From: Candidatus Woesearchaeota archaeon | GTDB taxonomy: Archaea; Nanobdellota; Nanobdellia; Woesearchaeales; GW2011-AR9 | Direction of reading: 5' to 3' | DNA length: 64,000 bases | Assembly (NCBI GenBank): GCA_945861715.1 | Contig: CAMAVK010000002.1 | Coordinates: forward strand, 74,440-138,439 | In this document: piece by piece, positions 33,881-55,791 of the stretch | Layout: each line of letters opens with the position of its first letter | How positions within the stretch are numbered: the stretch's first letter is position 1 | The notes under the pieces: model-generated | What the model was told of the DNA's origin: nothing | The model's input: only the letters and a program-made list of their open reading frames with translations | Databases searched by the model: none | Translations under genes and position numbers: made by a program

Positions 33881-33942
33881 AGCGACAATTCAATTTTCTA
33901 AAAAAGAAACGTCCACAAATATGACGAAGAGAGGGTGTGAAA

Positions 33943-34347
33943 ATGAAAGATTTTTTCTTACAATTAAAAGAGAAGTTAATTGGTCCTGGTGATAATGCTG
34001 AGCCTGAGACTCCAGAAGATTTTGTTGAAGTTGCATCATCAACACAAGGTAAAGAAGAAAAAGCACGAGTTATTGTTCGACCTTTTGTGATGGAAGATTT
34101 TGAAGATATTAAAGAAGTTCTTGATGTTTTACGAGAAGGTAATACTATTGCCCTGGTTAATATTAAACCTTTAAAGGATAAGGATCTTGTTGAGCTTAAG
34201 AGAGCTATTTCAAAGCTTCGAAAGACTTGCGAAGCAATTGATGGTGATATTGCAGGATTTGGGGAGGATTATGTTGTAGCTGTTCCTTATTTTGCGCGAA
34301 TTCATCGAAGTGGTGGAGCATCTAAACCAGCTCCGTCTGATCAATAA
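33943..34347 (+). CDS. sepF: SepF-like cell division protein
   Basis: 134 residues from the ATG at 33943, behind GAGGGTG. The first 14 residues form an amphipathic helix (MKDFFLQLKEKLIG) suited to membrane binding. After a linker, the SepF domain spans about 44-122 (ARVIVRPFVMEDFEDIKEVL, NTIALVNIKPL, CEAIDGDIAGFGEDYVVAVP). Archaeal SepF anchors FtsZ to the membrane at the division site. No ftsZ is in the window. Confidence 0.88.
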   Translation: MKDFFLQLKEKLIGPGDNAEPETPEDFVEVASSTQGKEEKARVIVRPFVMEDFEDIKEVLDVLREGNTIALVNIKPLKDKDLVELKRAISKLRKTCEAIDGDIAGFGEDYVVAVPYFARIHRSGGASKPAPSDQ

Positions 34348-39172: not shown

Positions 39173-41437
39173 GTGAGAAAAAATCATATCAAAAATAAGA
39201 GGCTTCATGGACAAAAGATATGGGCATTTAGTTTGCTCTCTGTTTTGATTGTTGTTGGTTTTGGTGCTCTATTTCACTATTCAAGTTCCTTTTCTTCTCT
39301 ATCACTTACCGGGCAGGTTACCGCTGATTCCCCATTTCTTTCTAATGCTCCTTTGGTACCAGTAACAGGCGTGGCTAGTGCTTATTCTCGCGGTTTTATT
39401 TCAAATACTGTTCCTTATGTATATTATGTTGGTTCACGAAGACAAGCGATATGTACTTGTCCAAAAAATGTGTGTCCTGCGTTTGCTTCGTGCGGAGTTG
39501 CTCTTGCGTCTGCTCCAGCTCTTATTGCGCAGATTACATCAAATGATGCAAAGTGTTTTGCGGTTACTCAAAAAGCAGGAGTCACATATGGCTCGGCTCC
39601 TACTATTACCATCGGTATTTGCCCTGTTGCGAGTAAAGCTGCAAGTCCACCTCCACCTTCTGCATGTTCATCTATAACGCATGGTACGCTTTGCTCTGGA
39701 GATGATATTGGTACTGTTCCTGCTACTGATTTTTCGTTGCCTGTTCTTAGTTGTACTAATCAACGAAAGTGTGAGTTTACTTGTGGTGCTGGTTATGTTC
39801 CGGTTGGAAAACAATGTATTGCTGTACCTGCAGCCGGCGTATGTGTTGATTCGGATTCGGGCGTTAATGGTGCGGTTCAAGGCTACGGTGTTACTTCAGG
39901 ATTGGTTAAAGTTGATTCGTGTTTTAGTGCGACTAGTATGCGTGAAGTAACTTGTTCTAATAACCAAATTAGTACCTCGAATAGTTTTACGTGTTCGGCT
40001 CAACAGGGTTGTGTTAACGGGATGTGTTCTGCTCGCACTAATTTGTATAATACTGTTCTTGCTGCTCCTGGCCCTTTTGCTCGTTCAGTGTGTGAAAAAC
40101 GATTGGCTGAGTTAGGTTTGTATCCGTCGGATTCCGTTCGAGCTGCGTCATGCCTGGGTACACATGTGGGCGTTCCACTCTTTATGGCAAATACTGGTCG
40201 AGTGTATACTGTTGATACTATTGGTCTTAGTCTTCCTGGTGGGTCCATTGCTGTTCCTACGGGTACACTCAAAGCTATTGGTAATTTTTGTCCAGTGTAT
40301 CGAAGTTCGCATGCTGCTGAATTTGTAACTGACACTGTTGGAGCTAATTCGTTTTATTACCCCACTTCTGCTGTGGCGCTTAAGGGTTGCCTTGGGTCTC
40401 TTGATCCAACTCTTCTTATTTCTTATGATGGTACATCATTAGTTCTTGCGACAAGTAACTCCATGTTTGATATTTTTTCCAATGTTGCCCTTTATCCAAC
40501 GTACGCAGTGCACGTTGCAGATGTTGATGTAGATAGGATTGCTGATGGTGTTGATAATTGTGTAAATATTGCTAATCCTACTCAAACTGATACCGACCGT
40601 GATGGTAAGGGAGATTTATGTGATAATTGTGTTTCCGTTTCGAATGTAGGCCAACTTGATTCTGATTCTGATCTAGTTGGAAATGCTTGTGACAATTGTG
40701 CTGATCTTGCTAATCGTGATCAGTTAGATTCTGATCGTGATAAAATTGGTGATGTGTGTGAAGTTGTTGCTCCTGCTCGCACGCTGCCTTCTTATTGGGA
40801 TTTGAATAATGATAATTTAGTAGATACGAGAGCTGATAGTGTTGGTCCTCCTGCTGTTACTAATTTAGATTCTGCCTGTGCTATGGCAGCGTTTAATTAC
40901 TTACCCCTTCGTCAATTTCAACCGGTCAAGGCTGCATGTGGTAATTCGCTTGTTGGATCTCGGAAAATTGATTTTGATTGTAATGGTCGCGTTAGTTTGA
41001 ATGAGATGCTCGAAACAATTGCAGTTATTACTCAAGGACAACCTATCTCTGGTGATCTTAATACTGATACTATCCCAGATTGTACTCTTTTGAATACTGA
41101 TTCTGACGGTATTGCGTTTGTTGATGACAATTGTCCTACAGTTTCAAATGTTGATCAAGCAGATGCTGATTCTGATGGAGTTGGGAACGTTTGCGATGCT
41201 GATTATGTATCTCCTGCTGCAGCTGCTCCTACTGGTGGGGCGGGGGCGGGTACTGGTGCTGGTCAGGCACTTGCTCGTCAGGTATTACCTTATGACTTAA
41301 ATGGAGATGGATGTGTAAATAGATCCGATGTTGATGTATTATTTGCAGAGTTTAGTTCTAATCGCAATTCCCGTGCTGTTGCACATAGGTTAACCTTAAT
41401 AGCTCGCCATATGGGTGAGGGATGTGTGGTGGGTTAA
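39173..41437 (+). CDS. Membrane-anchored surface protein: TSP3 repeats and dockerin-like end
   Basis: 754 residues, GTG start with AGGGGT upstream. One membrane helix (about 18-36) then SLTGQVTADS. A Cys-rich region follows, including a C-GDD-G module (LCSGDDIGTV..., KCEFTCGAGYVPVGKQC). Thrombospondin type 3 calcium repeats at about 450-530 and 640-675 (DSDSDLVGNACDNC, DADSDGVGNVCD). An EF-hand-like DFDCNGRVSLNEM near 602. The end, DLNGDGCVNRSDVDVLFAEF, is a dockerin-like calcium loop and helix. First gene of the 15-kb surface cluster; its stop is one base from the next start. Confidence 0.75.
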   Translation: MRKNHIKNKRLHGQKIWAFSLLSVLIVVGFGALFHYSSSFSSLSLTGQVTADSPFLSNAPLVPVTGVASAYSRGFISNTVPYVYYVGSRRQAICTCPKNVCPAFASCGVALASAPALIAQITSNDAKCFAVTQKAGVTYGSAPTITIGICPVASKAASPPPPSACSSITHGTLCSGDDIGTVPATDFSLPVLSCTNQRKCEFTCGAGYVPVGKQCIAVPAAGVCVDSDSGVNGAVQGYGVTSGLVKVDSCFSATSMREVTCSNNQISTSNSFTCSAQQGCVNGMCSARTNLYNTVLAAPGPFARSVCEKRLAELGLYPSDSVRAASCLGTHVGVPLFMANTGRVYTVDTIGLSLPGGSIAVPTGTLKAIGNFCPVYRSSHAAEFVTDTVGANSFYYPTSAVALKGCLGSLDPTLLISYDGTSLVLATSNSMFDIFSNVALYPTYAVHVADVDVDRIADGVDNCVNIANPTQTDTDRDGKGDLCDNCVSVSNVGQLDSDSDLVGNACDNCADLANRDQLDSDRDKIGDVCEVVAPARTLPSYWDLNNDNLVDTRADSVGPPAVTNLDSACAMAAFNYLPLRQFQPVKAACGNSLVGSRKIDFDCNGRVSLNEMLETIAVITQGQPISGDLNTDTIPDCTLLNTDSDGIAFVDDNCPTVSNVDQADADSDGVGNVCDADYVSPAAAAPTGGAGAGTGAGQALARQVLPYDLNGDGCVNRSDVDVLFAEFSSNRNSRAVAHRLTLIARHMGEGCVVG

Positions 41438-41438
41438 G

Positions 41439-43028
41439 ATGATATCTTCACGTGGGCTTTCAAAGGTTGTACTCATTGGTGTTATGGCTATTTTACTCGT
41501 GGGTGTTCTGGTATTTGTTATGTATAATAAAAGTGCTGTTGGGCAAGCTGTAGCTGTTAACACTGTTAACATTAATACTGTTCATGCGGGTGATGTAGGG
41601 CTTAGTGGTCCAGTTGTTGAGGGTTCAGAGAGCGCTTCAGTTGAAGTAGGACAAGAGTACTTTCTTCGTTTGTTTGCGAATCCCTCCGCTGATTTACATT
41701 CCTATGTTTTCACACTACGCTTTCCAGGGCAGTTTGCGTTTTCTGATACGCCTTATTCTTTCTCTACTCTAAATCCTGATTTTAGTATTCATCAGTCGGT
41801 TGTAAGTGGTGCTGATTATACTGAACTCATAGTAATGGTTAACTCGAATACTGGTGGGGTGATTGATGGCGGGCAGGCACTTTCACTTGGAAGAATATTT
41901 ATGAGGGCAGTTTCTGAAGGAAGTACTAATCCTACTTTTTCGTTTAGTGCACTTGATGAGTCTGGAGCTATCATTCTTGGTGAGGATGACCATGTTTTTG
42001 TTACACCTATCCGTGCAGTTCTTCCCGCTGCGCCTCCTGGTTCTGAGGTGGATCCAATTATTGTTGATACTTGTGATGATAATGGGGTGGCTGTTCCAGT
42101 TATAACTCAGCGGTGTGGTGCTCAGGGTGTGGTTGAGTATTGTGCGCAGAATCTTGGTGAGTCTGCACAATGGTCAGTTGATCCTGATATGCAATGTGGT
42201 GCGGGTACACATTGTGCTGGTGCTGGGATGTGTACTGCTGATGTTGCTGCTTCCCCCGCTGTTGCTGTTGTTGGGGGTGTCTGTGTAGTTGGAGACAGTG
42301 CGTCGGGTTTAGTTTGTGAGAATAGTGTATGGAAGATTGCGAGCGGATGGGATTGTGGATTGCATAGATCTGATTGTGTTTCTGGTACGGCTTGCTCTGC
42401 TGATGGGATTTGTCGAGTACCGGTAGTAGCTGTTGATATGTGTACTGTGGGTGATACTCGTTGTGCAGGTCTGAGTGCTCAAGAAGAATGTGTTCGCGGT
42501 GCTGATGGTATACTTGCGTGGGGCAATATGCAGGGGTGTACCACTCTTATTAGTGGTCAGTTGGGTCGGTCAGTTTCGCACGCGTTTTGTCCGTATGGAG
42601 TTCCGGGTGCATCGCAACACTGTATTGCAGATGAAAACCGTAATGGTATAGAGGATGGACCCAACGATCCTGTTGAAGTTGAAGCTGCTGCGCCTCCTGC
42701 TCCTGAGGTTCCTGCAGTTGAGGAAGTTCCTGCAGTAGTTTGTGTGCTTGGCGATTATAACTCGGATGGACGTGTGTCGATTCAAGACTTTCGTGGATTT
42801 CGGTCCCATGTGTTGTCGTGGAATGATTTGAGTTCGAACTTGGATTGTGGTTCTGCAGGTCAACAATCCTGTTCCGTTCGTGGTCAGTTCCAATGTGATT
42901 CCGGATTAGGGTTTGGTGCTGCCGTGTCGGCATGTAATCCTGGGTGTGTCGTTGGTGACTTTGATTCCAACGGTCGGGTTTCGATTCAGGATTTTAGAGG
43001 ATTTAGAAACGCGGTATTGCGTAGGTAG
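41439..43028 (+). CDS. Scaffoldin-like protein: N-terminal cohesin, C-terminal dockerin-like module
   Basis: 529 residues from the ATG at 41439. Membrane helix (about 12-32), then KSAVGQAVAVN. A cohesin-like beta domain spans about 50-185 (SVEVGQEYFLRLFANPSADL, YVFTLRFPGQFAF, LSLGRIFMRAVSEGST). Cys-rich segments follow. The last 95 residues are a dockerin-like module: GDYNSDGRVSIQDFRGFRSH, a 45-residue insert with cysteines, then GDFDSNGRVSIQDFRGFRNA. Having both partners in one chain would let it polymerise or bridge. Tightly linked to genes on both sides. Confidence 0.78.
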   Translation: MISSRGLSKVVLIGVMAILLVGVLVFVMYNKSAVGQAVAVNTVNINTVHAGDVGLSGPVVEGSESASVEVGQEYFLRLFANPSADLHSYVFTLRFPGQFAFSDTPYSFSTLNPDFSIHQSVVSGADYTELIVMVNSNTGGVIDGGQALSLGRIFMRAVSEGSTNPTFSFSALDESGAIILGEDDHVFVTPIRAVLPAAPPGSEVDPIIVDTCDDNGVAVPVITQRCGAQGVVEYCAQNLGESAQWSVDPDMQCGAGTHCAGAGMCTADVAASPAVAVVGGVCVVGDSASGLVCENSVWKIASGWDCGLHRSDCVSGTACSADGICRVPVVAVDMCTVGDTRCAGLSAQEECVRGADGILAWGNMQGCTTLISGQLGRSVSHAFCPYGVPGASQHCIADENRNGIEDGPNDPVEVEAAAPPAPEVPAVEEVPAVVCVLGDYNSDGRVSIQDFRGFRSHVLSWNDLSSNLDCGSAGQQSCSVRGQFQCDSGLGFGAAVSACNPGCVVGDFDSNGRVSIQDFRGFRNAVLRR

Positions 43029-43034
43029 GGAAGA

Positions 43035-43925
43035 ATGAATTCTACTACTTTTGTTTTTCTTATTTTTGTGCTTCTTTCAACGTTTGTTATTGCCCCACAA
43101 CAACCTGGTGCTGGAGAAGTTCCTGTCGTTACTTGTGTTGGAACTCCACTCCCTGGTACTACACCTTGTTGGTCTGGGACTGGTGTTGTAGCTCCTGGTA
43201 CTCCTATCAGGTATATCACTGCTGGTAATGCTGTTTGTGGCGATTCATTCGAATGTAAGTATGCTTGTCCTTTGGGCCAAGTGGCTGCTCTTGATGGCTC
43301 TGGTTGTCCTACACCGATTAGTTTTGATTTAACTCCGGGAGCTTCTCAGCTTTTCCGTTGGAATAGCCAGTTGGATTACAAACTGACTCTTACTCCGGAA
43401 GGTTTGAATTCGGATGTAGCCAATGTAGATATTTTGGAGCGGACTGCTGATGGTGCTTATCACTCGGTTCGCCGGCTGCGCTTGCTATGGGGTGAGCCTC
43501 TTACAGTGGATATTTCTGTTGCAAGGGTGGGTCCAGAGATTTATGTAACATATGATACTGACGCTGGTGGTGTTTATTTTTTCAAATTACAAAGTGTTGA
43601 CAATTCTCCATTAATTTTGCAGGCTAACGCGGGTGATTGTCTTCGAGGCGATTATAATGTTGATGGTCGTGTTTCAATTCAAGACTTTCGTGGATTTCGA
43701 TCGCATGTATTGTCGTGGTCAACTTTGAGTGAGGATGCAACTTGTGGTGGAGAAGGGCAACAAAGTTGTGCTGTGCGTGGTCAGTTCCAATGTGATTCCG
43801 GGTTAGGGTTTGGTGCTGCCGCGTTAGTTTGTGCTGCGAGTTGCAATATTGGTGACTTTGATTCTAATGGTCGCGTTTCTATTCGGGATTTTAGAGGATT
43901 TCGTAATGCGGTTCTGGGAAGATAA
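43035..43925 (+). CDS. Secreted dockerin-module protein
   Basis: 296 residues, starting 7 bp after the previous stop. Signal peptide (FVFLIFVLLSTFVIA). A short Cys-rich module (GDSFECKYACPLGQVAALDG) is followed by a beta domain of about 100 residues (LFRWNSQLDYKLTLTPEG) and the C-terminal dockerin-like module: GDYNVDGRVSIQDFRGFRSH and GDFDSNGRVSIRDFRGFRNA, with the same six-Cys insert as its neighbours. No membrane anchor, so it probably attaches via a cohesin. Confidence 0.78.
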   Translation: MNSTTFVFLIFVLLSTFVIAPQQPGAGEVPVVTCVGTPLPGTTPCWSGTGVVAPGTPIRYITAGNAVCGDSFECKYACPLGQVAALDGSGCPTPISFDLTPGASQLFRWNSQLDYKLTLTPEGLNSDVANVDILERTADGAYHSVRRLRLLWGEPLTVDISVARVGPEIYVTYDTDAGGVYFFKLQSVDNSPLILQANAGDCLRGDYNVDGRVSIQDFRGFRSHVLSWSTLSEDATCGGEGQQSCAVRGQFQCDSGLGFGAAALVCAASCNIGDFDSNGRVSIRDFRGFRNAVLGR

Positions 43926-44022
43926 CATTTTTTCCCCTATGCTTTAGATATCTGTCACATTTTCAGTTGAGAGTGTGTTTATCGCTTCAATGTTGTTTTG
44001 AATGTAGATTCGTCGAAGACTT

Positions 44023-44032
44023 TTTAAATTCC
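44023..44032 (+). promoter_or_regulatory. TATA box for the 881-residue surface protein
   Basis: CTTTTTAAAT lies 20-27 bp before the ATG at 44050 and no ribosome site precedes that ATG, fitting a leaderless start of a second transcript in the cluster. Confidence 0.5.
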
Positions 44033-44049
44033 AGTTTTATTGTTATTAT

Positions 44050-46695
44050 ATGCGCTCTGGATGGTTGATGTTTATACTAGTACTTGTTTTAGTGTTAGTC
44101 CCCATGGTTGAGGCCATTGAGTTTTCTGGATGTAATTCGTATTTTTCAAGTGCTACCTGCATATCTCACTCTGAGTGTTTTTGGAGGTATGGTAATTTAG
44201 GGGTAGGTAGTTGTCTTACGAAGGCTGGAACTCCAGCGTCAATTTCGGTTTCTTGTCCGAGTGTGGTGTCTGTTAATCAAACGTTTGAATGCACTTTATC
44301 AGGTGAGAATGTTAGGTTGAATAATGCGGAGATTGCTATTTTTGCTAATCCATTAGAAATACATGGGACTCCTTCAATCTCAAGCATGCAGTGGTATTCT
44401 GCGCAAAATCCTTTTTACACCCTACTCTCTGATAGGCTTTCGATAGTTTCTCTTGCGGATTATCAACCAGTACTTAATGATAGGATCGCTTCTCCCTATT
44501 TTGGTCCAATTATGAGATTTAAGATAGCATTGTCTCGTAATGTTAATAGGATTTCTGTTTCTGTTACGGGGTCTGACCTTCAACTTGATACTTCAAGTGG
44601 TCCTATTACGGTTCAACAAGGTTCTATTCCAATCACTTTTCCTTGCTATAATTCGTGGAATCGACCAGTATCTTTGGCGCAAGTTTCTACTCTTAATCCT
44701 ATTTATTGTTCTGTTGTTTTTACAAATGATTATTTTGGCAAGAATTTACGGATGTCATTTGGGATTTCTTCAGCTGGGTTGGCTCCGAGTTATATCAACC
44801 CCGATACATCGGCCGATTTTGTCCATTATTACACCACTGGTAAACCAGGGGTTGATATTAATGATAATTTGGTAATTACCAATTTAGATGTTCCTTTTGG
44901 TCAACCAATAACCATCACTTCTTCTGATAGAATACCAAAAGGGGCAGTTTTATCTATGGGGATGTTGTATACTCGTACAGGTTCTATTACTCCAACTCTT
45001 AGTACTTTATCTAGTTCTGGTCCTCCATTCCGTCTAACAGGGTCTCCAATTATGGTAAATTATTTTCTGGGTGGAGGGTGTCAACCGAGAGGGAGAGAGT
45101 TAGTACTGGAAGGAGCACATCCAGGTCAAGTTGTGTGTGGATTAATGAATGGTCAGCAGGGATGGATTTCAAAGATAGGTTCATACTGTGTAGATAATAA
45201 TAATTGTGGTGATACTGGACGTTGCCAACAAGGTGTGTGTAAAGTTGCGTCTGGTAGCTCTTGTGTACGAGATTTGGATTGTATGTCGGGTGATGCTTGT
45301 GAGTCAAATAGCTGTTCGTTTGTTAGACTAAATGCTCCTTGTACCGTTGCCGGTAAAACGGTTATTACCCCGATTTTCGGAACTTTGAAATGTGTATTGC
45401 GTGAGGGTAATCTGAGATGGCTCGGGGTACTTTCAACGGGGTGTGATGGGGATGCGTCTTGTGATACGGGTTTATTTTGTTCCAATTCTCGGTGTGCACC
45501 TGTTGCGGTTGGTGCTCCTTGCGTGACTCTTGGTGCTTTTCAGGGAAGAATTCCTTCATATGATGTAGCTACTTCGTTTATCTGTTCAACTGTTCCTGGC
45601 TCCTCTCCTTTACGTGAGGAAGTGCGGTTGAAAAGTAATAGTCCTTGCAGATTAGATTCTGAGTGTGTGTATGGTGATGTGTGCGATGGGGGACGGTGTC
45701 GCTTTGTATCCCCTGGGCGTGATTGTTTCATTGAAGGTCGTGAGCTTTTTCAAAGTGGTCGATTATATCGATGTGTTCTGGAAGAAGATGGTCTGAGTTG
45801 GAAGTCTGTTCCTGGTAATGTTTGTGCTGCTGATGGTGATTGTGATTCAGATGTGTCTCTTTTTTGTAGTGTAGGGAGGTGTGCAGTTATGGATTCGGGG
45901 TTACCTTGCTTTGCAGCTGGTACGCGTTTTGTAGAAGGTAGTTCCGACCCTTATCGTTGTATTTCTATTGATGGAACTAATGCGGCGGGATCTTATCGTT
46001 TATCAGTTACTAATGGTGGGGCGTGTGATGCACATTCGGAGTGTATGTCTGGTCAGTGTAATGGTGGGTTCTGTTCTCGGTTTGAAATTTTTCATACTTG
46101 TTATCAATTGCATTCAACATGGACTCAAGATAGTCGCACTCTTGTTTGCGAGCAGACTTCACAGTTAATCCCAGCGTTTATTTGGAAGGTCCCCGAGGGA
46201 GGAAGGTGTCAGGGTGATGATGGGCTATCGTATCCCAATCGCTGTGCAGCTGAAAATTCGCGTTGTGTGGATGGTCGATGTCTTGCTGAAGGTGAGTTAT
46301 GCTCTGTTCTTAACTCTCAAATTAATGGTGATGTAAATTCTCTTGTGTGTAAAATAGTTGGGGATCATTTAGAATGGGTCTTAGAGGGTGTGGTGGTACA
46401 GGGTGAATGTCTCTTGGGTGATTATACTGGTGATGGTCGTGTGTCGATTCAAGACTTTCGTGGATTTCGGTCGCATGTGTTGTCATGGAGTGATCTTAGT
46501 TCTAATGTTGACTGCGGAGCTGGGGGTCAGCAATCGTGTGCGGTACGTGGTCAGTTCCAATGTGATTCTGGTTTAGGGTTTGGCGGGGCTGTGTCACAAT
46601 GTGGCGCTCATTGTAATATTGGGGATTTTGATTCTAATGGTCGGGTTTCAATTCAGGACTTTCGTGGGTTTAGAAACGCGGTTCTTGTTCGATAA
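44050..46695 (+). CDS. Large Cys-rich surface protein with dockerin-like end
   Basis: 881 residues. Signal peptide (LMFILVLVLVLVPMVEA). Residues 60-330 hold two cohesin-like beta stretches (SVNQTFECTLSGENV..., VLSMGMLYTRTG). Residues 330-780 hold at least six Cys-rich repeats of the form DSECVYGDVCDGGRCRFV, resembling EGF-like or colipase-like knots. The last 95 residues are the shared dockerin-like module (GDYTGDGRVSIQDFRGFRSH ... GDFDSNGRVSIQDFRGFRNA). It could present Cys-rich binding knots on a cohesin scaffold. Confidence 0.75.
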   Translation: MRSGWLMFILVLVLVLVPMVEAIEFSGCNSYFSSATCISHSECFWRYGNLGVGSCLTKAGTPASISVSCPSVVSVNQTFECTLSGENVRLNNAEIAIFANPLEIHGTPSISSMQWYSAQNPFYTLLSDRLSIVSLADYQPVLNDRIASPYFGPIMRFKIALSRNVNRISVSVTGSDLQLDTSSGPITVQQGSIPITFPCYNSWNRPVSLAQVSTLNPIYCSVVFTNDYFGKNLRMSFGISSAGLAPSYINPDTSADFVHYYTTGKPGVDINDNLVITNLDVPFGQPITITSSDRIPKGAVLSMGMLYTRTGSITPTLSTLSSSGPPFRLTGSPIMVNYFLGGGCQPRGRELVLEGAHPGQVVCGLMNGQQGWISKIGSYCVDNNNCGDTGRCQQGVCKVASGSSCVRDLDCMSGDACESNSCSFVRLNAPCTVAGKTVITPIFGTLKCVLREGNLRWLGVLSTGCDGDASCDTGLFCSNSRCAPVAVGAPCVTLGAFQGRIPSYDVATSFICSTVPGSSPLREEVRLKSNSPCRLDSECVYGDVCDGGRCRFVSPGRDCFIEGRELFQSGRLYRCVLEEDGLSWKSVPGNVCAADGDCDSDVSLFCSVGRCAVMDSGLPCFAAGTRFVEGSSDPYRCISIDGTNAAGSYRLSVTNGGACDAHSECMSGQCNGGFCSRFEIFHTCYQLHSTWTQDSRTLVCEQTSQLIPAFIWKVPEGGRCQGDDGLSYPNRCAAENSRCVDGRCLAEGELCSVLNSQINGDVNSLVCKIVGDHLEWVLEGVVVQGECLLGDYTGDGRVSIQDFRGFRSHVLSWSDLSSNVDCGAGGQQSCAVRGQFQCDSGLGFGGAVSQCGAHCNIGDFDSNGRVSIQDFRGFRNAVLVR

Positions 46696-46775
46696 TACTA
46701 TTTTTGATATTACGAAAGGTTTATATTTACTAATTGAATACATTAATCAAGTTTTACTACTACGAGGGATGATGG

Positions 46776-47558
46776 ATGGCTAAGTTTTACTCACTGTTAA
46801 TACTATTTTTACTAATGCTTGGTTCTGTGGTTTTGGCAGATGCAACGTTTACACTTAGTCCGAATCCAGCGACGGCAAGTGTAGGTGATACGGTGACTGT
46901 TACACTGGCCTTTGATGCTGGTGGCGCAGTTAATCCTTTTAGTACTGCATATGTTTTAACTTCGCAGCAGCTTACTTTTGATGATCCGGCTGGGCCGCAA
47001 TGCGGGTTAGAAGATAACTCCGACTCTCATATTTTAAATTGTGATTATATGGAGGCCTTCGCTCCAAATTCTTTTGTGATTACTGCTCGGGTTGTTTCAG
47101 TACCTATAACTATCAATCTCGAGCAAGCCTATGTAGATCTTTATAATCCTAATAATGATGATGAGTCTATTTCGGTGAATGTGGCGCCTGTTCCTCCGTT
47201 AATTATTCCTGCTGCTAATGCTGCTGCTGGTGGTGGTGTACCTGCTGCTTGTCAAGAATCTTGGGCATGCTCCGACTTCTCAAATTGTGCAAATGGGCAA
47301 GAAACACGAACTTGCGAAGATACTAATCATTGTGGGACTCAAGTATCTCAGCCTGTACCTTCGCGTGCCTGTGTGGATGGTCCATCTTGTCATGAGGGAA
47401 CTCATAATGAAGGTGGTAGTTGTGTTGCTGATGTTGCTCCTCTCTCTCAAGAAGATTTGCTTGCACAATTAGAAACTGTTCTTGGTGGATCTGGGTTGAA
47501 TAGATTACAGCAAATCTCACATATCGCCCGATTATTAATGCAGGGTGGTGTACAATGA
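46776..47558 (+). CDS. Secreted cohesin-like plus TSP1-like protein
   Basis: 260 residues. Signal peptide (LLILFLLMLGSVVLA), then a cohesin-like or related beta domain (TLSPNPATASVGDTVTVTLA, about 20-140), then a thrombospondin type 1-like segment, SWACSDFSNCANGQETRTC, ending CGTQVSQPVPSRAC. A short helical tail follows (LNRLQQISHIARLLMQ), like the tails of the 754- and 1179-residue proteins. Its stop overlaps the next start (ATGA), so the genes are translationally coupled. Confidence 0.72.
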   Translation: MAKFYSLLILFLLMLGSVVLADATFTLSPNPATASVGDTVTVTLAFDAGGAVNPFSTAYVLTSQQLTFDDPAGPQCGLEDNSDSHILNCDYMEAFAPNSFVITARVVSVPITINLEQAYVDLYNPNNDDESISVNVAPVPPLIIPAANAAAGGGVPAACQESWACSDFSNCANGQETRTCEDTNHCGTQVSQPVPSRACVDGPSCHEGTHNEGGSCVADVAPLSQEDLLAQLETVLGGSGLNRLQQISHIARLLMQGGVQ

Positions 47559-50500
47559 AGTTTCGTGCATTTTCTTTTTGTGTACTCCTTTTAGCTCTTA
47601 GTCTGGGTTCTTTGGCTGCGACTACTGTATTTTTTCAGCCTTCCACACTATCTCTAGCTCAAGGTGAAGTAAAAGAAGTAACGGTTATAATAAATTCTGA
47701 TCTACCACTCAACAGCATACAAATTGCTGGTACATATGATCCAGCTAAGGTGTCTGTTGTTGCAACAAAATTGCCTTTGGTGGGTGCAAATGGTGTGGCA
47801 TGGCCCGTTGCTACTATAGGGGCTCCCGTATTTGCTCCGCCTAGCAATCGCTTTGCTTATAATGCTGTTCTTAATCCAGATGTTCCTGCGCAATACCTTG
47901 CTCCTGGTCAGACGCGTCTTTTTACCTTGCGGTTTACTGGTATTGCTGCTGGTGTTAGTACAGTTTCTATGGCTTCAGCATTTTATAGGACGGGGGCAGT
48001 TAACCCTATTGCTATTGCTGTTTTACCCACTGTTTCTGTAACCGGTCCAGTTGCTCGTTTTAATCCTTTTCCTGGAACTCCATTTGATAATGCTCCTGTC
48101 ACTCCTCGTGCAGCAGGGACAGTAGATCAGGAAAATTGTGAGTTTCGATCATCTGCGGGTATAATCTCTGCTGGTTTCAACAGCGATAGGGATAATATTA
48201 TGCGTGATTCTCAAGATCCTGATTGTTTGAATCAAGCATGCGATGTTGCTGCTCCAACTAAAAAATGGACGTGGTCTTATTATTTAGGTGATACGGCTCG
48301 TACTGCTCCTCCTTCGGCTTTAGGTACTGGTTGTTGTGCTCCAAATCAATGTGCTCTTGCAGGTCAATGTATGAACCCAGGTTCTATTGATGAATCTAGC
48401 GGTCATTCAATGGTATGTTTGGGTCATGATAATGCGGTTTTGAGTTCGGCGACTGTTGTTGCGGTAGCGGGTGCGGTTGCTCCAATTGATTCTAATCCGT
48501 CGGTTAATTCATGGCTAGTATGTACTCCTGGTAGTCGATCTGTTACGGTAGGTGGTATCGTGTATACCTGTGCAAATGGTCATTGGACTTCACCTGCGTG
48601 TAGAGCTCCAGATCCTGCTGCCTTTGCTCATTCTAGTTTCTGTGCTGGTGATGATGTAGGCGTGGTTGGTGCGCCTCTTGCGCCTGCTCTTGTTGGGTAT
48701 GATATTTCAATGAATAGAGGTATGTGTACTGCTGAGCGAAAGTGTGAGTATGCCTGTCAACAAGGATATCGGTTAGGAACAAATGCGAATGGTGCGCCTG
48801 CGTGTGTTTTAGATGTTCCATGTACTCCTACGCAAAATCCAGGTACAAATCCTAAACAATGTAAGGTAGGTAGTCCTACTGTTCTTCAGTATTGTGCAAA
48901 TGTAAATAATTTAGTGCAGTGGGTTGATTCACCTTGTAGTGCAGGACAGACATGTCATGCTGCTGATGCGCAACATACACTTGCGTATTGTACTTTAGAT
49001 GTTGATGCTGATGGTGTTGATGATTCAATTGATAATTGTCGTATGATTGCTAATCCCAATCAAGCTAACGCGCGTTTAGGTACACCTCAAAATAATGGGT
49101 ATGGTGATGCTTGTCAAGCAAATGCTGCTTGTACTATGGTTAATGGTGCTGCTTCTGGTTTTGTTTGGAGTTATGATTCTAGAGAGAATCCTGGTATAAA
49201 TCCTTTAATTGGATGTTGTGCTGCTGGATCTTGTGCAGATCGAAGAGGACTGTGTTTTACTTTTAATCCTGGAAACCCACAAACAATCAATGGATTTTGT
49301 AAGCCAGGTGGCAATTGGGAAATCTGTGACATTAATACTCATGGACTTGTGAGTTCAACTAATCCTGACTATAGATGTTTAAGTAAGCAAATTGCTGTTC
49401 CTGGACAAATTGTCCCTGCGGTTCCTGACCCTGTTTGGGTAAGATGTATGCCTAGTAATTTCATCTCTTTTGCGGGATCAAAGTTGGCGACTCCTGGTAA
49501 TGCAGCTTTTGTTGGTGATACTGAAGCTGGTGGGGTTGTTTGTGATGCTAATGGAGATTGGCACCCGTCACCATGTACAGGTATTATTCCTAACTCTAAG
49601 GTATGTACTGGTGATGATGTAGGTGTTGTTGATCAAACTCCTAAACTACTTGTTGCATCGTGTGATGCTCTTCCTCAAGCAAAGTGTCAATATGTGTGCT
49701 TGCGAGGATATATGAAGTCTGGTGGTAGTTGTGTTCCTGACTTAGATAATGATGCTATTGCTGACCCGGTTGATAACTGTCCTTCGGTTTATAACCCTGA
49801 TCAAAATGCTGCAAGTTGTGTTGAAGGCAATGCTTGTATTTCGAAAATTGATGTTGATAAATATCTAAATGTTCCTTCTGTTGCTCTTCCTATTCCTCCG
49901 AATTCGGCTGCTGTTTGGACTTATACCAATTCCCGAGATAATGTTGCTTCCAAAGTAGTTGCTTGTTGTAATGGTTACTTCAATCCTAATCCAGTATCCA
50001 ATGATTGTGCACTTCCTAATGGATATTGTATGAGAGAAAATGAAGTTTCTCGAGAGAAGTTATGCGGCGATAACCATATTATGGAAGTTTGTGATGCGCA
50101 GCATGATGGTGTAATCTCAAAATCTAATCCTCTTGTGCGCTGTAAATTTACGAAGCAAGTTGATGCTTGTCGAGCAGGTGAACGTCTAGCAGGAGATATG
50201 TGTATAAATGATATTACCAGGACAGCTCATGCTGCTGATTTCTGGGTTCCACAATGGCAAGTTTGTAATGAAGCAAATGTAGCGGATTATAATGATGGAT
50301 CATCATGTCAAGCGAGTGGTGCATGGCAGAGAGAAGAGTGTACTCTTGCGAAAGATGGCCAGGTTGGTTTAATGGATCATACCCTTCGGTGTAAGCATGA
50401 CTGGATGGGTAGTCCTGCATGGATTCAATGTAATACTGCAAATCTACAAATTTTCAATACTTTGAAGGATCAATACAATATTAATATTCGTAACCTTGTT

Positions 50501-51094
50501 CCTTCTCAAGGTTTTAATGATGGAAGTAGTTGTTCAGCAGCAGGTGATTGGATTTTGGAGCCATGTGGCCCCTCTAATCATGCTGATGTTCATACATTGA
50601 ACCGCAAATTGCGTTGCCGAGCAGGTTTCGCACCTGAGGGACAAGTTGTGGCGCACCCAGTTTGGGTCCAATGTAATACTGCGAATTTAGTATTATTCAA
50701 TGATAATCCTTCATGTGATGCTAGTGGATTTTGGCAAAGTGCAGAAATTGAGGCTAATCATGATTGTAATTTGGATCGTACTTGTACACCTGGTGATCCA
50801 TGTTCACTAGATTCTGATTGTGCTGATGGTGCGTGTTCTAATGGAATTTGTGAACCAATTCAGGATGCAGATAATGATGGTGTTCCTGATGTTTTTGATC
50901 AATGTCCGGATACTTCTCCAGATGAAATTAATATTGTAAATGGGGTTGGCTGTGTTGCGGGGGATAGCGAGGGTACAGTTGATGATTTTATAGAACTTGT
51001 TCGCGCGATACTCAATGATGATTCAAATGATCATAAAATACAATCCATTGCAGAATTATTTAGGACTCATTTGGATGTCCTTGCAGTTAATTAA
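47555..51094 (+). CDS. Giant cohesin-domain surface protein with Cys-rich repeats
   Basis: 1179 residues. Signal peptide (FCVLLLALSLGSLA), then a clear cohesin domain at about 20-170 (FFQPSTLSLAQGEVKEVTVI, IQIAGTYDPAKVSVV, LAPGQTRLFTLRFTG). Three roughly 250-residue Cys-rich repeats follow, each with a W-x-Y stretch, paired cysteines (GCCAPNQC, GCCAAGSC, ACCNGYF) and two with the C-GDDVGVV module. TSP3 repeats lie at about 490, 735 and 1110. The end (TVDDFIELVRAILND ... IAELFRTHLD) resembles the dockerin-like tail of the first cluster gene. No enzyme domain is seen. Confidence 0.76.
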   Translation: MKFRAFSFCVLLLALSLGSLAATTVFFQPSTLSLAQGEVKEVTVIINSDLPLNSIQIAGTYDPAKVSVVATKLPLVGANGVAWPVATIGAPVFAPPSNRFAYNAVLNPDVPAQYLAPGQTRLFTLRFTGIAAGVSTVSMASAFYRTGAVNPIAIAVLPTVSVTGPVARFNPFPGTPFDNAPVTPRAAGTVDQENCEFRSSAGIISAGFNSDRDNIMRDSQDPDCLNQACDVAAPTKKWTWSYYLGDTARTAPPSALGTGCCAPNQCALAGQCMNPGSIDESSGHSMVCLGHDNAVLSSATVVAVAGAVAPIDSNPSVNSWLVCTPGSRSVTVGGIVYTCANGHWTSPACRAPDPAAFAHSSFCAGDDVGVVGAPLAPALVGYDISMNRGMCTAERKCEYACQQGYRLGTNANGAPACVLDVPCTPTQNPGTNPKQCKVGSPTVLQYCANVNNLVQWVDSPCSAGQTCHAADAQHTLAYCTLDVDADGVDDSIDNCRMIANPNQANARLGTPQNNGYGDACQANAACTMVNGAASGFVWSYDSRENPGINPLIGCCAAGSCADRRGLCFTFNPGNPQTINGFCKPGGNWEICDINTHGLVSSTNPDYRCLSKQIAVPGQIVPAVPDPVWVRCMPSNFISFAGSKLATPGNAAFVGDTEAGGVVCDANGDWHPSPCTGIIPNSKVCTGDDVGVVDQTPKLLVASCDALPQAKCQYVCLRGYMKSGGSCVPDLDNDAIADPVDNCPSVYNPDQNAASCVEGNACISKIDVDKYLNVPSVALPIPPNSAAVWTYTNSRDNVASKVVACCNGYFNPNPVSNDCALPNGYCMRENEVSREKLCGDNHIMEVCDAQHDGVISKSNPLVRCKFTKQVDACRAGERLAGDMCINDITRTAHAADFWVPQWQVCNEANVADYNDGSSCQASGAWQREECTLAKDGQVGLMDHTLRCKHDWMGSPAWIQCNTANLQIFNTLKDQYNINIRNLVPSQGFNDGSSCSAAGDWILEPCGPSNHADVHTLNRKLRCRAGFAPEGQVVAHPVWVQCNTANLVLFNDNPSCDASGFWQSAEIEANHDCNLDRTCTPGDPCSLDSDCADGACSNGICEPIQDADNDGVPDVFDQCPDTSPDEINIVNGVGCVAGDSEGTVDDFIELVRAILNDDSNDHKIQSIAELFRTHLDVLAVN

Positions 51095-51107
51095 CTAGGT
51101 GATACTT

Positions 51108-53123
51108 ATGGCTTCAATGCAACAAAAACAATCTGTGCAATCAAAACCGGTTGCGAGACCAGCTGCTAAGCAAGTTGGTAGTATAAACAATAACGTGGGT
51201 GCGTCTGCTAGCGCTACACCTGCTGTTCCTTCAGCGAGCAGTCCATTAAAGTTTGTGGTTATTGCGGTTGTTGCTATTGTTGCAATAGCGTTGTTGCTCT
51301 TCTTTGTGAATAAAGGTACAGGTCATGCGATTAACTTTGGTGATGATGCTGGGATTGCGGCAAATATGGGTGGTGTATTTCTAGCTGATGGCAGTACCAT
51401 TCCGGTTGATAATGGGGCAGCTGATCTCTTATTACCGTTGAAAATTAATTTTGAGTCTCGTTCCGTTGCAGTGCAAGTTAATTATCACATTGAAGCATCT
51501 GAAGGTGCAATTTTTGAGTGTGATTTTGCATTACGTTCTGATTTGCAGGAGAGTGGACTTGTGGTGTTGAATGATCAATTCTGCTCTTTAGGTCAAGATA
51601 GTCATGTTGAAATTGCATTTTTATGTGCTGATGCAGAGTGCAGTAATGCCTTTTCTGGTGTTGAAGAAATTGGTCAGTTGCGGTTAACACCTGATGCCGA
51701 TAATACTGAACCTATTTCAGTTACTTTTGATAGTATTTCGTATGTTGATTTTGAAGATGTTGAAGATAGGATTGTTGATGTTGCTGTTCAAAATGCTGCG
51801 CTTAATTATGCTGGTGAGCCACCTGCTTGTCCTCCGACTGATTGTGCGTCTGAAGGTCAGAGTGCGTGTCAAGGTAATTCGGCATGGGGTACTTGTTCAG
51901 TGAATGTAAACACAGGTTGTTTAGAAGTTTCAAATGTTCCTGATGAGAATAGGTGTGGTCTAACTCGACATTGTGAGGTCGGAGCTTGCGTTGATAATCC
52001 ACCGTTTGTTTGTGTTGCTGCAGAGGGATGTATTGTTGAAGCTCAGTGTACTTTAGGTGGATTTTACTGGTATGCTGATGTGAATGGTGTTGAGACATGT
52101 CATGCTGAAGATGCTCCTCAATGTGATAATACCATTGATGCTGATAGTGATGGTGTTGGAGATGCTTGTGACAACTGTCCTGCTCTTGGTAATGGTAATC
52201 AGATTGATCTTGATGCTGACAGTATCGGTGACTCTTGTGATAATGATAAAGATGGCGATACTATTCCTAACAGTGATGAAATTGCAGGATGTGATATTGA
52301 TAATAGTCCAGAATGTGGTTCAGATAATACGGATTTTGATAGTGATGGGGTCTTAAATGATGTTGATAACTGTCCAAATCTAACGAATGCAAATCAAGCG
52401 GACTCGGATGCTGATAGAGTCGGCGATGCATGTGACGGTGAAGCGGGACCAAATAGTGATTTTGATGTTGATGGTGTTATTGATACTGGTGATAATTGTC
52501 CTCGTGTTGCAAATGCGGATCAAGCGGATCTGGATGCTGATGGTGTAGGAGATAACTGTGACAATTGCCGCAGTAATTCGAATGCTGATCAGGTGAATGC
52601 TGATAGTGATGCACTCGGTGATGCTTGTGATGTTTGTTCTCAAGATGACCAGAATGATCGCGATGCCGACGGTATTTGTGGTAATGTAGATAATTGTCCT
52701 GCAACTTCTAATCCTCTTCAAGAAGATGTAGATGCCGATGGTATTGGGGAAGCTTGTAATGGTATTCCTCGAGTAGTTGATAATGAGGTTGTCCAATCAA
52801 TGGACGGTCTGAAGGTTAAGGTTGTAGAGGGTGGAAAACAAGGAAGTGTGTTTACTACTTTAGTTATTGCTTTGGAACCTATTGACACCCCTTTTACGGT
52901 TTATACTACCTTACTTGATGCAGATGGAGTTACAATCGTGTTTGAGAGTCGAACTATTCAATCATTGGAACCAGGAAATTCATTTAGGGTACATACTGAT
53001 GGGGGTGTCCTTGAAGTTGTTAAAAAAGAAGTCATTGTTAATGATAATCTTGACCCTGCAACATCTCTTGTCCATCTTAACGGTAAGTTTTCAGTGAGTT
53101 ATGGTAATGTGGGGGTAAATTAG
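51108..53123 (+). CDS. Membrane-anchored protein with cohesin-like domain and TSP3 array
   Basis: 671 residues from the ATG at 51108, behind AGGTGAT; a GTG at 51099 overlaps that site and is rejected. A 45-residue Gln/Lys/Ala-rich cytosolic start, membrane helix (about 47-70) and the motif GTGHAINFG. A cohesin-like beta domain covers about 100-235 (RSVAVQVNYHIEASEG ... IGQLRLTPD). A long run of TSP3 calcium repeats spans about 340-560 (DADSDGVGDACDNCPA type). A last beta domain follows. It is a good candidate for the cell anchor of the complex. Confidence 0.75.
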   Translation: MASMQQKQSVQSKPVARPAAKQVGSINNNVGASASATPAVPSASSPLKFVVIAVVAIVAIALLLFFVNKGTGHAINFGDDAGIAANMGGVFLADGSTIPVDNGAADLLLPLKINFESRSVAVQVNYHIEASEGAIFECDFALRSDLQESGLVVLNDQFCSLGQDSHVEIAFLCADAECSNAFSGVEEIGQLRLTPDADNTEPISVTFDSISYVDFEDVEDRIVDVAVQNAALNYAGEPPACPPTDCASEGQSACQGNSAWGTCSVNVNTGCLEVSNVPDENRCGLTRHCEVGACVDNPPFVCVAAEGCIVEAQCTLGGFYWYADVNGVETCHAEDAPQCDNTIDADSDGVGDACDNCPALGNGNQIDLDADSIGDSCDNDKDGDTIPNSDEIAGCDIDNSPECGSDNTDFDSDGVLNDVDNCPNLTNANQADSDADRVGDACDGEAGPNSDFDVDGVIDTGDNCPRVANADQADLDADGVGDNCDNCRSNSNADQVNADSDALGDACDVCSQDDQNDRDADGICGNVDNCPATSNPLQEDVDADGIGEACNGIPRVVDNEVVQSMDGLKVKVVEGGKQGSVFTTLVIALEPIDTPFTVYTTLLDADGVTIVFESRTIQSLEPGNSFRVHTDGGVLEVVKKEVIVNDNLDPATSLVHLNGKFSVSYGNVGVN

Positions 53124-53124
53124 G

Positions 53125-54258
53125 ATGAGACGACTCATTCTTGCGATTTTCATTTTTGCTTTTTTTTCTTTTAGCGTTGCCGCAGTTGATGTTTCGCTTT
53201 CCGCAACTGAATTAGCGCGAGGACAGGTTTTGGTTTCTACTGTTACAAGTTGTGCTAATATTGCTACGTTGCAACTTAAGAATCCAGACGGACAATTAGT
53301 ATATGTTGATCAAGGAAATGCTGATTGGGAGTCTCGGTATAACACTAATTCCAATGGAGCACGGGGTAAATATTCTTTGAAAGTGCTTTGTCAGGATACA
53401 ACTTCTACAGAGAAATTCTTTTGTGTAGAAGCTCCTGGTTGTACTGATGTTGCTATTAATAATGTACCACCTCCTCCTCCAGCTGATGATGGTAATGCTA
53501 ATGCTGGGTCACCAAGTGGGAATAGTGGTGGAGGAGGACGACGTTGTAACCCAAAATGGCAATGTGATAATTATTGGACGCAATGTGATGTTACTTTACA
53601 ACAAAGTCGAAATTGTTTTGATACCACCAAATGTGCACCGCAGAAATTAGAGAATCGAACTTGTGCGCCATGTCAAGAGTCATGGGCTTGTTCAGCTTGG
53701 AGTCCATGTGAGGGTGGCATGGAGGGTCGAACTTGTTTAGATGATAAGGATTGTGGCACCGCAACGTACAAACCAGTTGAGGAGCGGCCATGTGGCGCTG
53801 ATATCGGTGGATATGAACCTGATCGATATACTTCGCAAGTTCCTCCACCGTCCGCTGCTGCACCAAGCCGACTGCAATATCCTGCAGTGCAAAAAGTGGT
53901 TGCACCTGTAGCTAGTGTATCGTTTTGGGATGAGTGGGGCTTTTTGATCCTTGCTTTGCTTGCGTTGTTGTTGCTTGTGGGTATTATTTTATATCTACTT
54001 CATATGAAGAACAATAAACATGCAGCATATAATTCGGATGAGTTGAAGATTTGGATGCTTAAAGAAAAAGAAGCTGGTTCGTCTGAAGGTGATATTCGTC
54101 AGATTTTAATGGAACAAACAGGTTGGACCAAAGAAGATGTGGATTTGGCGTTTGAAGAGTTGGCCAAATCTCAAACTCCTGCTGGGGTTGTACCTCCGTC
54201 GGTTGCATCTGTTGCTCCTGTGGAGCCGGTTAAGTCTGTTGAGAAAGGGAAGAAGTAG
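53125..54258 (+). CDS. Membrane protein with two TSP1-like domains and cytosolic helical tail
   Basis: 377 residues, starting 1 bp after the previous stop. Signal peptide (LILAIFIFAFFSFSVAA), beta domain (20-120), Pro/Gly linker, then two TSP1-like units (KWQCDNYWTQCDVTLQQSRNC and SWACSAWSPCEGGMEGRTC). A membrane helix lies near 273-293. The cytosolic end holds a three-helix module, EGDIRQILMEQTGWTKEDVD, like that of the protein at 28073. It can link the outer complex to the cell interior. The 3' end is duplicated at 55461. Confidence 0.75.
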   Translation: MRRLILAIFIFAFFSFSVAAVDVSLSATELARGQVLVSTVTSCANIATLQLKNPDGQLVYVDQGNADWESRYNTNSNGARGKYSLKVLCQDTTSTEKFFCVEAPGCTDVAINNVPPPPPADDGNANAGSPSGNSGGGGRRCNPKWQCDNYWTQCDVTLQQSRNCFDTTKCAPQKLENRTCAPCQESWACSAWSPCEGGMEGRTCLDDKDCGTATYKPVEERPCGADIGGYEPDRYTSQVPPPSAAAPSRLQYPAVQKVVAPVASVSFWDEWGFLILALLALLLLVGIILYLLHMKNNKHAAYNSDELKIWMLKEKEAGSSEGDIRQILMEQTGWTKEDVDLAFEELAKSQTPAGVVPPSVASVAPVEPVKSVEKGKK

Positions 54259-55723: not shown

Positions 55724-55787
55724 TTATATATCTATAATATAGAACATGGTTCTAGAATAATGATTATTAGTAAAAATTAGAGGTGAT
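55724..55787 (+). promoter_or_regulatory. Promoter, inverted repeats and ribosome site before the PGF-pre-PGF gene
   Basis: TATA box TTTATATAT at about 55724-55732. AGAACATGGTTCT (55741-55753, a 5-bp inverted repeat) and AATAATGATTATT (55757-55769) lie around the expected start site. AGAGGTGAT (55779-55787) is a perfect ribosome site before the GTG at 55792. Confidence 0.5.
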
Positions 55788-55791
55788 TAAT

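What the first reader, a model, noticed from the sequence alone, without database searches (positions are those of the whole stretch)
39173..54258. 15-kb cohesin-dockerin surface-protein cluster without visible enzymes
Seen: eight co-directional exported proteins. Cohesin-like beta domains occur in those at 41439, 47555, 46776 and 51108; dockerin-like calcium modules end those at 39173, 41439, 43035 and 44050. Two proteins are anchored by an N-terminal helix and one by a C-terminal helix. TSP3, TSP1-like and Cys-rich modules fill the rest. Established: cohesin-dockerin pairs assemble cellulosomes in clostridia, and isolated domains are known in archaea. Inference: here one chain (41439) has both partners and can act as an adaptor, so the cluster would build a calcium- and disulfide-stabilised surface complex, perhaps for attachment to a host cell or a polymer. 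No glycoside hydrolase is visible, so this differs from a cellulosome.
Basis: partly seen in the sequence, partly recalled or inferred. Interest (0 to 1): 0.88.

Follow-up and report, generated by a model that had tools for sequence, protein, structure and literature searches.

The report
Woesearchaeal cohesin-dockerin surface complex locus
A family of tiny uncultured archaea (Woesearchaeota) carries, in a recurring gene order, a fast-changing set of surface proteins that appears to be built with the same plug-and-socket parts bacteria use for cellulose-digesting machines, but with binding modules in place of enzymes, so it may be a cell-surface attachment device.

Summary
The window comes from a 1.3-Mb Candidatus Woesearchaeota-type genome.

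Cohesin: one β-domain, in the protein at 51099, is a cohesin by fold (AlphaFold pLDDT 74.5; the top 19 PDB matches are all cohesins) and by homology. The proposed cohesins at 41439, 46776 and 47555 show no detectable homology, and a fold prediction for 41439 failed; they stay open.

Dockerins: the C-terminal modules of 41439, 43035 and 44050 are 75-81% identical, held by purifying selection (dN/dS 0.12-0.23), have two calcium loops, and match PDB dockerins weakly. They differ from classical dockerins by a ~40-residue four-cysteine insert. 39173 has only partial modules.

Comparative genomics: the cohesin occurs in 27 of 49 family genomes and 0 of 304 others in the order. 37 of 40 copies lie beside a conserved C-anchored TSP1-like protein (53125 type). 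The order dockerin carriers, hairpin-tailed proteins, N-anchored cohesin, 53125-type recurs; the last two are fused in six loci. Relatives carry lectin-like, LRR, Ig and β-helix modules, and no catalytic glycoside hydrolase among the families listed.

Best reading: a species-specific, enzyme-free cohesin-dockerin surface assembly, probably for attachment. Binding and function are untested.

The parts
39173..41437 (+). P1: N-anchored Cys-rich protein, TSP3 repeats, two separate dockerin-type calcium loops (near residues 600 and 707)
41439..43028 (+). P2: N-anchored; unverified beta domain (residues ~40-200), Cys-rich middle, C-terminal dockerin-like module
42735..43025 (+). dockerin-like module of P2 (two calcium loops with a 4-Cys insert between them)
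43035..43925 (+). P3: exported, small beta region, C-terminal dockerin-like module
43632..43922 (+). dockerin-like module of P3
44050..46695 (+). P4: exported, 56 Cys, two beta regions, C-terminal dockerin-like module
46402..46692 (+). dockerin-like module of P4
46776..47558 (+). P5: exported beta domain (not shown to be a cohesin), TSP1-like module, C-terminal helical hairpin
47430..47549 (+). C-terminal hairpin of P5 (LLxxLxxVL...LQQISHIARLL)
47555..51094 (+). P6: 1179-aa exported Cys-rich protein, N-terminal beta domain (related to L014_9221), TSP3, C-terminal hairpin
50972..51091 (+). C-terminal hairpin of P6
51099..53123 (+). P7: N-anchored cohesin protein with six TSP3 stretches and a C-terminal Ig-like domain
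51333..51815 (+). cohesin domain of P7 (residues 79-239)
   Evidence: AF2 pLDDT 74.5, pTM 0.71; top 19 PDB matches are cohesins; 25-member family with Pfam Cohesin up to 3.4e-8
52131..52763 (+). TSP3 calcium repeats of P7
53125..54258 (+). P8: signal peptide, N-terminal domain conserved in relatives, two TSP1-like modules, C-terminal TM helix, conserved cytoplasmic tail; marker gene of the system
33937..34347 (+). SepF homologue; the same gene lies at or upstream of the cluster in several relatives (neighbourhood marker, not part of the complex)

Best explanation
The locus encodes an enzyme-free cohesin-dockerin cell-surface assembly. P7 is held in the membrane by an N-terminal helix and presents one cohesin next to the membrane. 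P8 is held by a C-terminal helix and works together with P7 as the anchoring core (the two are one polypeptide in some relatives). P2, P3 and P4, which end in near-identical dockerin-like modules, dock in a calcium-dependent way on the cohesin of P7, so that one socket can display interchangeable Cys-rich, extended binding proteins. P5 and P6 belong to the complex through a different C-terminal helical hairpin. The displayed parts turn over quickly between species, as expected for a structure that contacts another cell or a surface polymer. Shown: the cohesin fold of P7, the dockerin sequence signature of P2-P4, purifying selection on the modules, the conserved gene order and P7-P8 fusion. Inferred: binding, calcium dependence, stoichiometry, co-assembly with P5/P6, and the attachment role.
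For: Cohesin fold of P7, and homologues of P7 matched by Pfam Cohesin. The dockerin profile A1 against the PDB returns six matches, five of them type I dockerins (E 0.057-1.4). Modules of P2-P4: dS about 0.8-1.2, dN/dS 0.12-0.23; 42-60% of 4-fold sites differ. The cohesin domain is in 27/49 family genomes and 0/304 others; 37 of 40 copies lie near a P8-type gene. P8 is in 37/49 family genomes at E<1e-20 and 2 of 304 others. Recurrent order dockerin -> hairpin -> cohesin -> P8, and cohesin-P8 fusions in L021, L055, L056, L061, L062, L065. Domain census of 83 cluster proteins: DUF4215, MopE, TSP3, Laminin_G_3, beta-helix, LRR, Ig/cadherin, FG-GAP and no catalytic GH among the 25 families listed.
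Against: The dockerin fold was not verified in 3D (one search failed), and Pfam dockerin scores of P2-P4 are below cut-off. Only one cohesin is verified in the genome, so a larger multi-socket assembly is unproven. No interaction data and no co-folding of pairs. Attachment is inferred from module types and divergence; no host is known. Several clusters surveyed have no recognised dockerin motif, because it diverged, because contigs are truncated, or because other docking modules are used.
Confidence: 0.55

Rival explanations
1. The C-terminal modules are not docking tags for cohesins but calcium- and disulfide-stabilised caps or sorting/anchoring signals, and the P7 domain is a cohesin-fold adhesion domain used for other ligands.
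For: The module has a 4-Cys insert not typical of classical dockerins, Pfam scores are below cut-off, and other near-identical C-terminal cassettes without calcium loops recur in relatives (for example in L064), as sorting tags would.
Against: Cohesin and dockerin-type modules occur in the same gene clusters and on the same chains; the best PDB matches for the two domains are cohesins and type I dockerins.
Confidence: 0.2
2. The proteins build a structural envelope layer (S-layer-like lattice) rather than an attachment device.
For: High Cys and calcium-module content; several N-anchored proteins with the same juxtamembrane motif; neighbourhood of the cell-division gene sepF.
Against: Sequence turns over very fast (P7 cohesin 11-21% identical; SepF 67-78% and S6e 50-57%), and cluster proteins carry lectin-like, LRR and beta-helix modules in different species, unlike a conserved lattice protein.
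Confidence: 0.2
3. A cellulosome-like enzyme scaffold whose dockerin-bearing enzymes are encoded elsewhere.
For: Cohesin and dockerin modules are the defining parts of cellulosomes.
Against: Whole-genome searches find no dockerin module outside this locus and no multi-cohesin scaffoldin; no catalytic GH appears among the families listed for 83 relatives' cluster proteins.
Confidence: 0.04

Closest known systems
Non-cellulosomal cohesin/dockerin modules of archaea (Archaeoglobus fulgidus, cohesin PDB 2xdh)
   Same: cohesin fold (2xdh is match 10 for P7); archaeal; no cellulose link
   Different: here the modules form a dedicated multi-gene surface locus with a conserved order and a conserved C-anchored partner
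ANME cohesin/dockerin surface proteins (PMC9012536)
   Same: archaeal, surface-linked, species-variable architectures, proposed cell-cell role
   Different: ANME have proteins with up to 5 cohesins and dockerin-tagged ABC substrate-binding proteins or S-layer domains; here single cohesins, TSP-type anchors and no transporter parts seen
Clostridial cellulosome (type I cohesin-dockerin)
   Same: fold of the cohesin; calcium-loop signature of the dockerin
   Different: no enzyme, no multi-cohesin chain; dockerin-like module carries a ~40-residue 4-Cys insert
Omnitrophota giant proteins with dockerin domains (PMC10066038)
   Same: small host-dependent lineage; dockerin and Laminin_G_3 modules proposed as adhesins
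   Different: bacterial, single giant ORFs; no cohesin-dockerin gene cluster described in the passages read

Membership tests
Cohesin (PF00963) | cohesin-type beta-sandwich fold | tested here: met
   P7 only: model, top 19 PDB matches are cohesins (best E 9e-6; TM-score normalised by query up to 0.63)
Cohesin (PF00963) | profile score over the family cut-off | tested here: not met
   no window protein reaches it; homologues in three related genomes do, and 4 of 25 members of the P7 family match at E<1
Cohesin (PF00963) | beta domains of P2, P5, P6 are cohesins | tested here: inconclusive
   profile scores at background; P2 model pLDDT 36.5
Cohesin (PF00963) | binds a dockerin | not testable with these tools
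   no complex prediction or experiment available
Dockerin type I (PF00404) | duplicated F-hand calcium loop plus helix | tested here: met
   by sequence only: two GDxxxxGRVSI[QR]DF units per module in P2, P3, P4 (P4's first loop has T at position 3)
Dockerin type I (PF00404) | ~60-residue compact module | tested here: not met
   about 95 residues, with a 4-Cys insert between the two units
Dockerin type I (PF00404) | profile score over the family cut-off | tested here: not met
   P2, P3, P4 score 16.2, 17.7, 10.8 bits against 22.9; a cluster protein of relative L021 exceeds it at 30.7 bits
Dockerin type I (PF00404) | dockerin fold | tested here: inconclusive
   AF2 job on P2 too uncertain; sequence profile hits PDB dockerins weakly
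Cellulosome | scaffoldin with several cohesins | tested here: not met
   one cohesin detectable in the genome
Cellulosome | dockerin-tagged glycoside hydrolases | tested here: not met
   no dockerin outside the locus; no catalytic GH among families listed in relatives' clusters

The most novel reading that the evidence does not exclude
A dedicated, family-wide surface organelle of Woesearchaeota in which a P7-P8 membrane core uses species-private cohesin-dockerin pairs (a new disulfide-stabilised dockerin variant) and a second, calcium-free C-terminal docking hairpin to display exchangeable recognition proteins, setting which host cell or surface each species binds.
Probability: 0.3. Interest if true: 0.82.

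Novelty: new variant of a known kind. Interest (0 to 1): 0.66.

Why it matters
How DPANN archaea attach to partners is largely unknown at the molecular level. A conserved, recognisable locus (P8 marker, N-anchored cohesin, dockerin carriers) gives a testable candidate in a whole family. It also extends cohesin-dockerin assembly from cellulose machines and scattered archaeal examples to a stereotyped, enzyme-free surface locus, with a new dockerin architecture and species-private pairs that could serve as orthogonal binding reagents.

Tried and rejected
(1) Relatives of the long protein 47555 by DNA patterns in named genomes: none; its N-terminal domain in 288 genomes: essentially one real relative, in G015. 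(2) Profile-profile comparison of the P7 cohesin family with the beta domains of P2-P6: no better than reversed or shuffled controls; unfiltered hmmsearch likewise. (3) AlphaFold on P2 with an 8-row alignment: pLDDT 36.5, so no fold search was run on it. (4) P7 family profile against PDB sequences: no cohesin match by sequence alone; only the fold search showed it. (5) Recent duplication or gene conversion as the reason for near-identical modules: rejected, synonymous sites are far diverged. (6) Cellulosome-type enzyme scaffold: rejected. (8) Literature: no paper in the held library was found that describes cohesin-dockerin proteins in Woesearchaeota; most subscription papers are not held, so this is weak evidence of absence.

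Full report
OBSERVATION. The eight ORFs at 39173-54258 exist, lie on one strand and mostly abut or overlap by a few bases. I call them P1 (39173), P2 (41439), P3 (43035), P4 (44050), P5 (46776), P6 (47555), P7 (51099) and P8 (53125). All begin with a hydrophobic helix and have 10 to 71 cysteines; P1, P2 and P7 look N-anchored, P3-P6 and P8 look like they have cleavable signal peptides, and P8 has a second helix near its C-terminus (hydropathy only). The window is G000:C2:74440-138439 of a 1.3-Mb, 98% complete genome. Named relatives found through P8 are mostly Candidatus Woesearchaeota MAGs, which is how I place the organism.

DOCKERIN SIDE. P2, P3 and P4 end in a ~95-residue module; over 97 codons 73-79 residues are identical pairwise, and it occurs three times in the genome and nowhere else. 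It has two calcium loops of dockerin type followed by helix-like stretches, separated by ~40 residues with four cysteines. At DNA level the copies are 74-76% identical and 42-60% of 4-fold sites at identical residues differ; dS is about 0.8-1.2 and dN/dS 0.12-0.23. So this is old duplication under protein-level constraint, as expected if the copies share one partner. Pfam Dockerin_1 scores are below cut-off. A profile of the three modules against all PDB sequences returns six matches at E up to 10, five of them type I dockerins. P1 has only isolated calcium loops. The fold itself was not verified.

COHESIN SIDE. The P7 domain (residues 79-239) belongs to a family of about 25 domains that sit right after the N-terminal helix of cluster proteins in related genomes. 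Four of 25 members match Pfam Cohesin, best E 3.4e-8. AlphaFold2 on this alignment gave pLDDT 74.5 and pTM 0.71; the top 19 Foldseek matches in the PDB are cohesins, including the non-cellulosomal cohesin of Archaeoglobus fulgidus. The top match is chain A of 5nrk, a cohesin-dockerin complex, and the dockerin chain of the same entry is among the matches of the P2-P4 module profile. P7 is the only member of this cohesin family in the genome. The beta domains of P2, P4, P5 and P6 do not score above reversed or shuffled controls, and the one structure job spent on P2 failed.

COMPARATIVE EVIDENCE. Clusters with the same make-up were first seen in G015 and G021. A profile of P8 (two TSP1-like modules, C-terminal helix, conserved cytoplasmic tail) finds P8 at E<1e-20 in 37 of 49 genomes of the window's family and in 2 of 304 other genomes of the order (counted). 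The P7 cohesin is found in 27 of 49 and 0 of 304; 37 of its 40 copies lie on the same contig within about 10 kb of a P8 match (my count). Reading the DNA around P8 shows a stereotyped order: dockerin carriers, then signal-peptide proteins with a C-terminal helical hairpin, then an N-anchored cohesin protein, then P8. The window follows it. In 15 of 22 unfused cases the gene directly upstream of P8 carries the P7 cohesin and/or the P7 C-terminal Ig-like domain, and in six further loci the two are fused into one protein (my count, with a rough ORF caller). In 159 control ORFs from the same contig there was no cohesin and two stray motif matches.

SECOND C-TERMINAL MODULE. P5, P6 and about 14 relatives' proteins end in a ~35-residue predicted hairpin, [LI]xxIxxxL...LQKhSxIAxxL. 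Twelve of 16 lie inside the P8 clusters as I delimited them. P1's C-terminus looks intermediate between a calcium loop and this hairpin, which suggests, but does not show, that the hairpin is a dockerin that lost its calcium sites.

WHAT THE CLUSTERS DISPLAY. Among 83 cluster proteins of relatives the commonest Pfam families are DUF4215, MopE metal-binding, TSP3, Laminin_G_3 and beta-helix, with LRR, Ig/cadherin and FG-GAP in single proteins and pentaxin in two. Two glycoside-hydrolase-associated accessory domains and a sialidase N-terminal domain appear once each, but no catalytic hydrolase is among the 25 of 30 families listed. In the window's own genome no dockerin module lies outside the locus. 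Divergence is high: the P7 cohesin is 11-21% identical to its relatives, while SepF is 67-78% and S6e 50-57%.

MECHANISM. Shown: one cohesin fold, three constrained dockerin-like modules, conserved order and fusion, absence of dockerin-tagged enzymes. Inferred: the modules dock on the P7 cohesin in a calcium-dependent way, so P2, P3 and P4 are interchangeable passengers of one membrane socket; P8 stabilises or signals from that socket through its cytoplasmic tail; P5/P6 join through the hairpin; the whole attaches the cell to a partner or polymer. Attachment is the least certain step.

PRIOR KNOWLEDGE. Non-cellulosomal cohesins and dockerins in archaea are known, with verified binding in some (as summarised in PMC9012536, which also describes ANME proteins with up to five cohesins). 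Omnitrophota have a dockerin-bearing giant protein proposed as an adhesin (PMC10066038). I found no description in Woesearchaeota in the library searched. Hence: a new variant of a known kind, not a new category.

Noticed in passing
window P2 and P7 N-termini; L021, L052, L056-L061 and others: A juxtamembrane motif G[QKRH]A (often FVGKAI or AGQA) follows the N-terminal helix in 39 of 57 N-anchored cluster proteins against 4 of 42 signal-peptide-type ones, and in 13 of 130 other exported proteins. It may be a processing or sorting site; if it is cleaved, the 'anchored' proteins would be released.
   Followed up: partly
window 33937-34347; L014, L021, L064, L071, L095, L103, L108: A sepF homologue lies in or near the upstream side of the cluster in several relatives; ribosomal protein S6e and a ~114-aa OB-fold membrane protein lie downstream in many. 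In the window genome S6e lies more than 20 kb downstream of the cluster.
   Followed up: partly
window 55783-57549: The next gene downstream on the + strand encodes a PGF-pre-PGF domain protein (NCBIfam TIGR04213, 75.6 bits against cut-off 28) with a C-terminal helix.
   Followed up: no
L064:6851-13174: Three proteins share another C-terminal cassette (CVDTxxLLxxISQWRN...LLTSIQKWRTQExC type) without calcium loops: a species-specific tag that may replace the dockerin.
   Followed up: no
L091, L094: Dockerin-type repeats in small lipoprotein-like proteins on contigs without a P8 match in two relatives.
   Followed up: no
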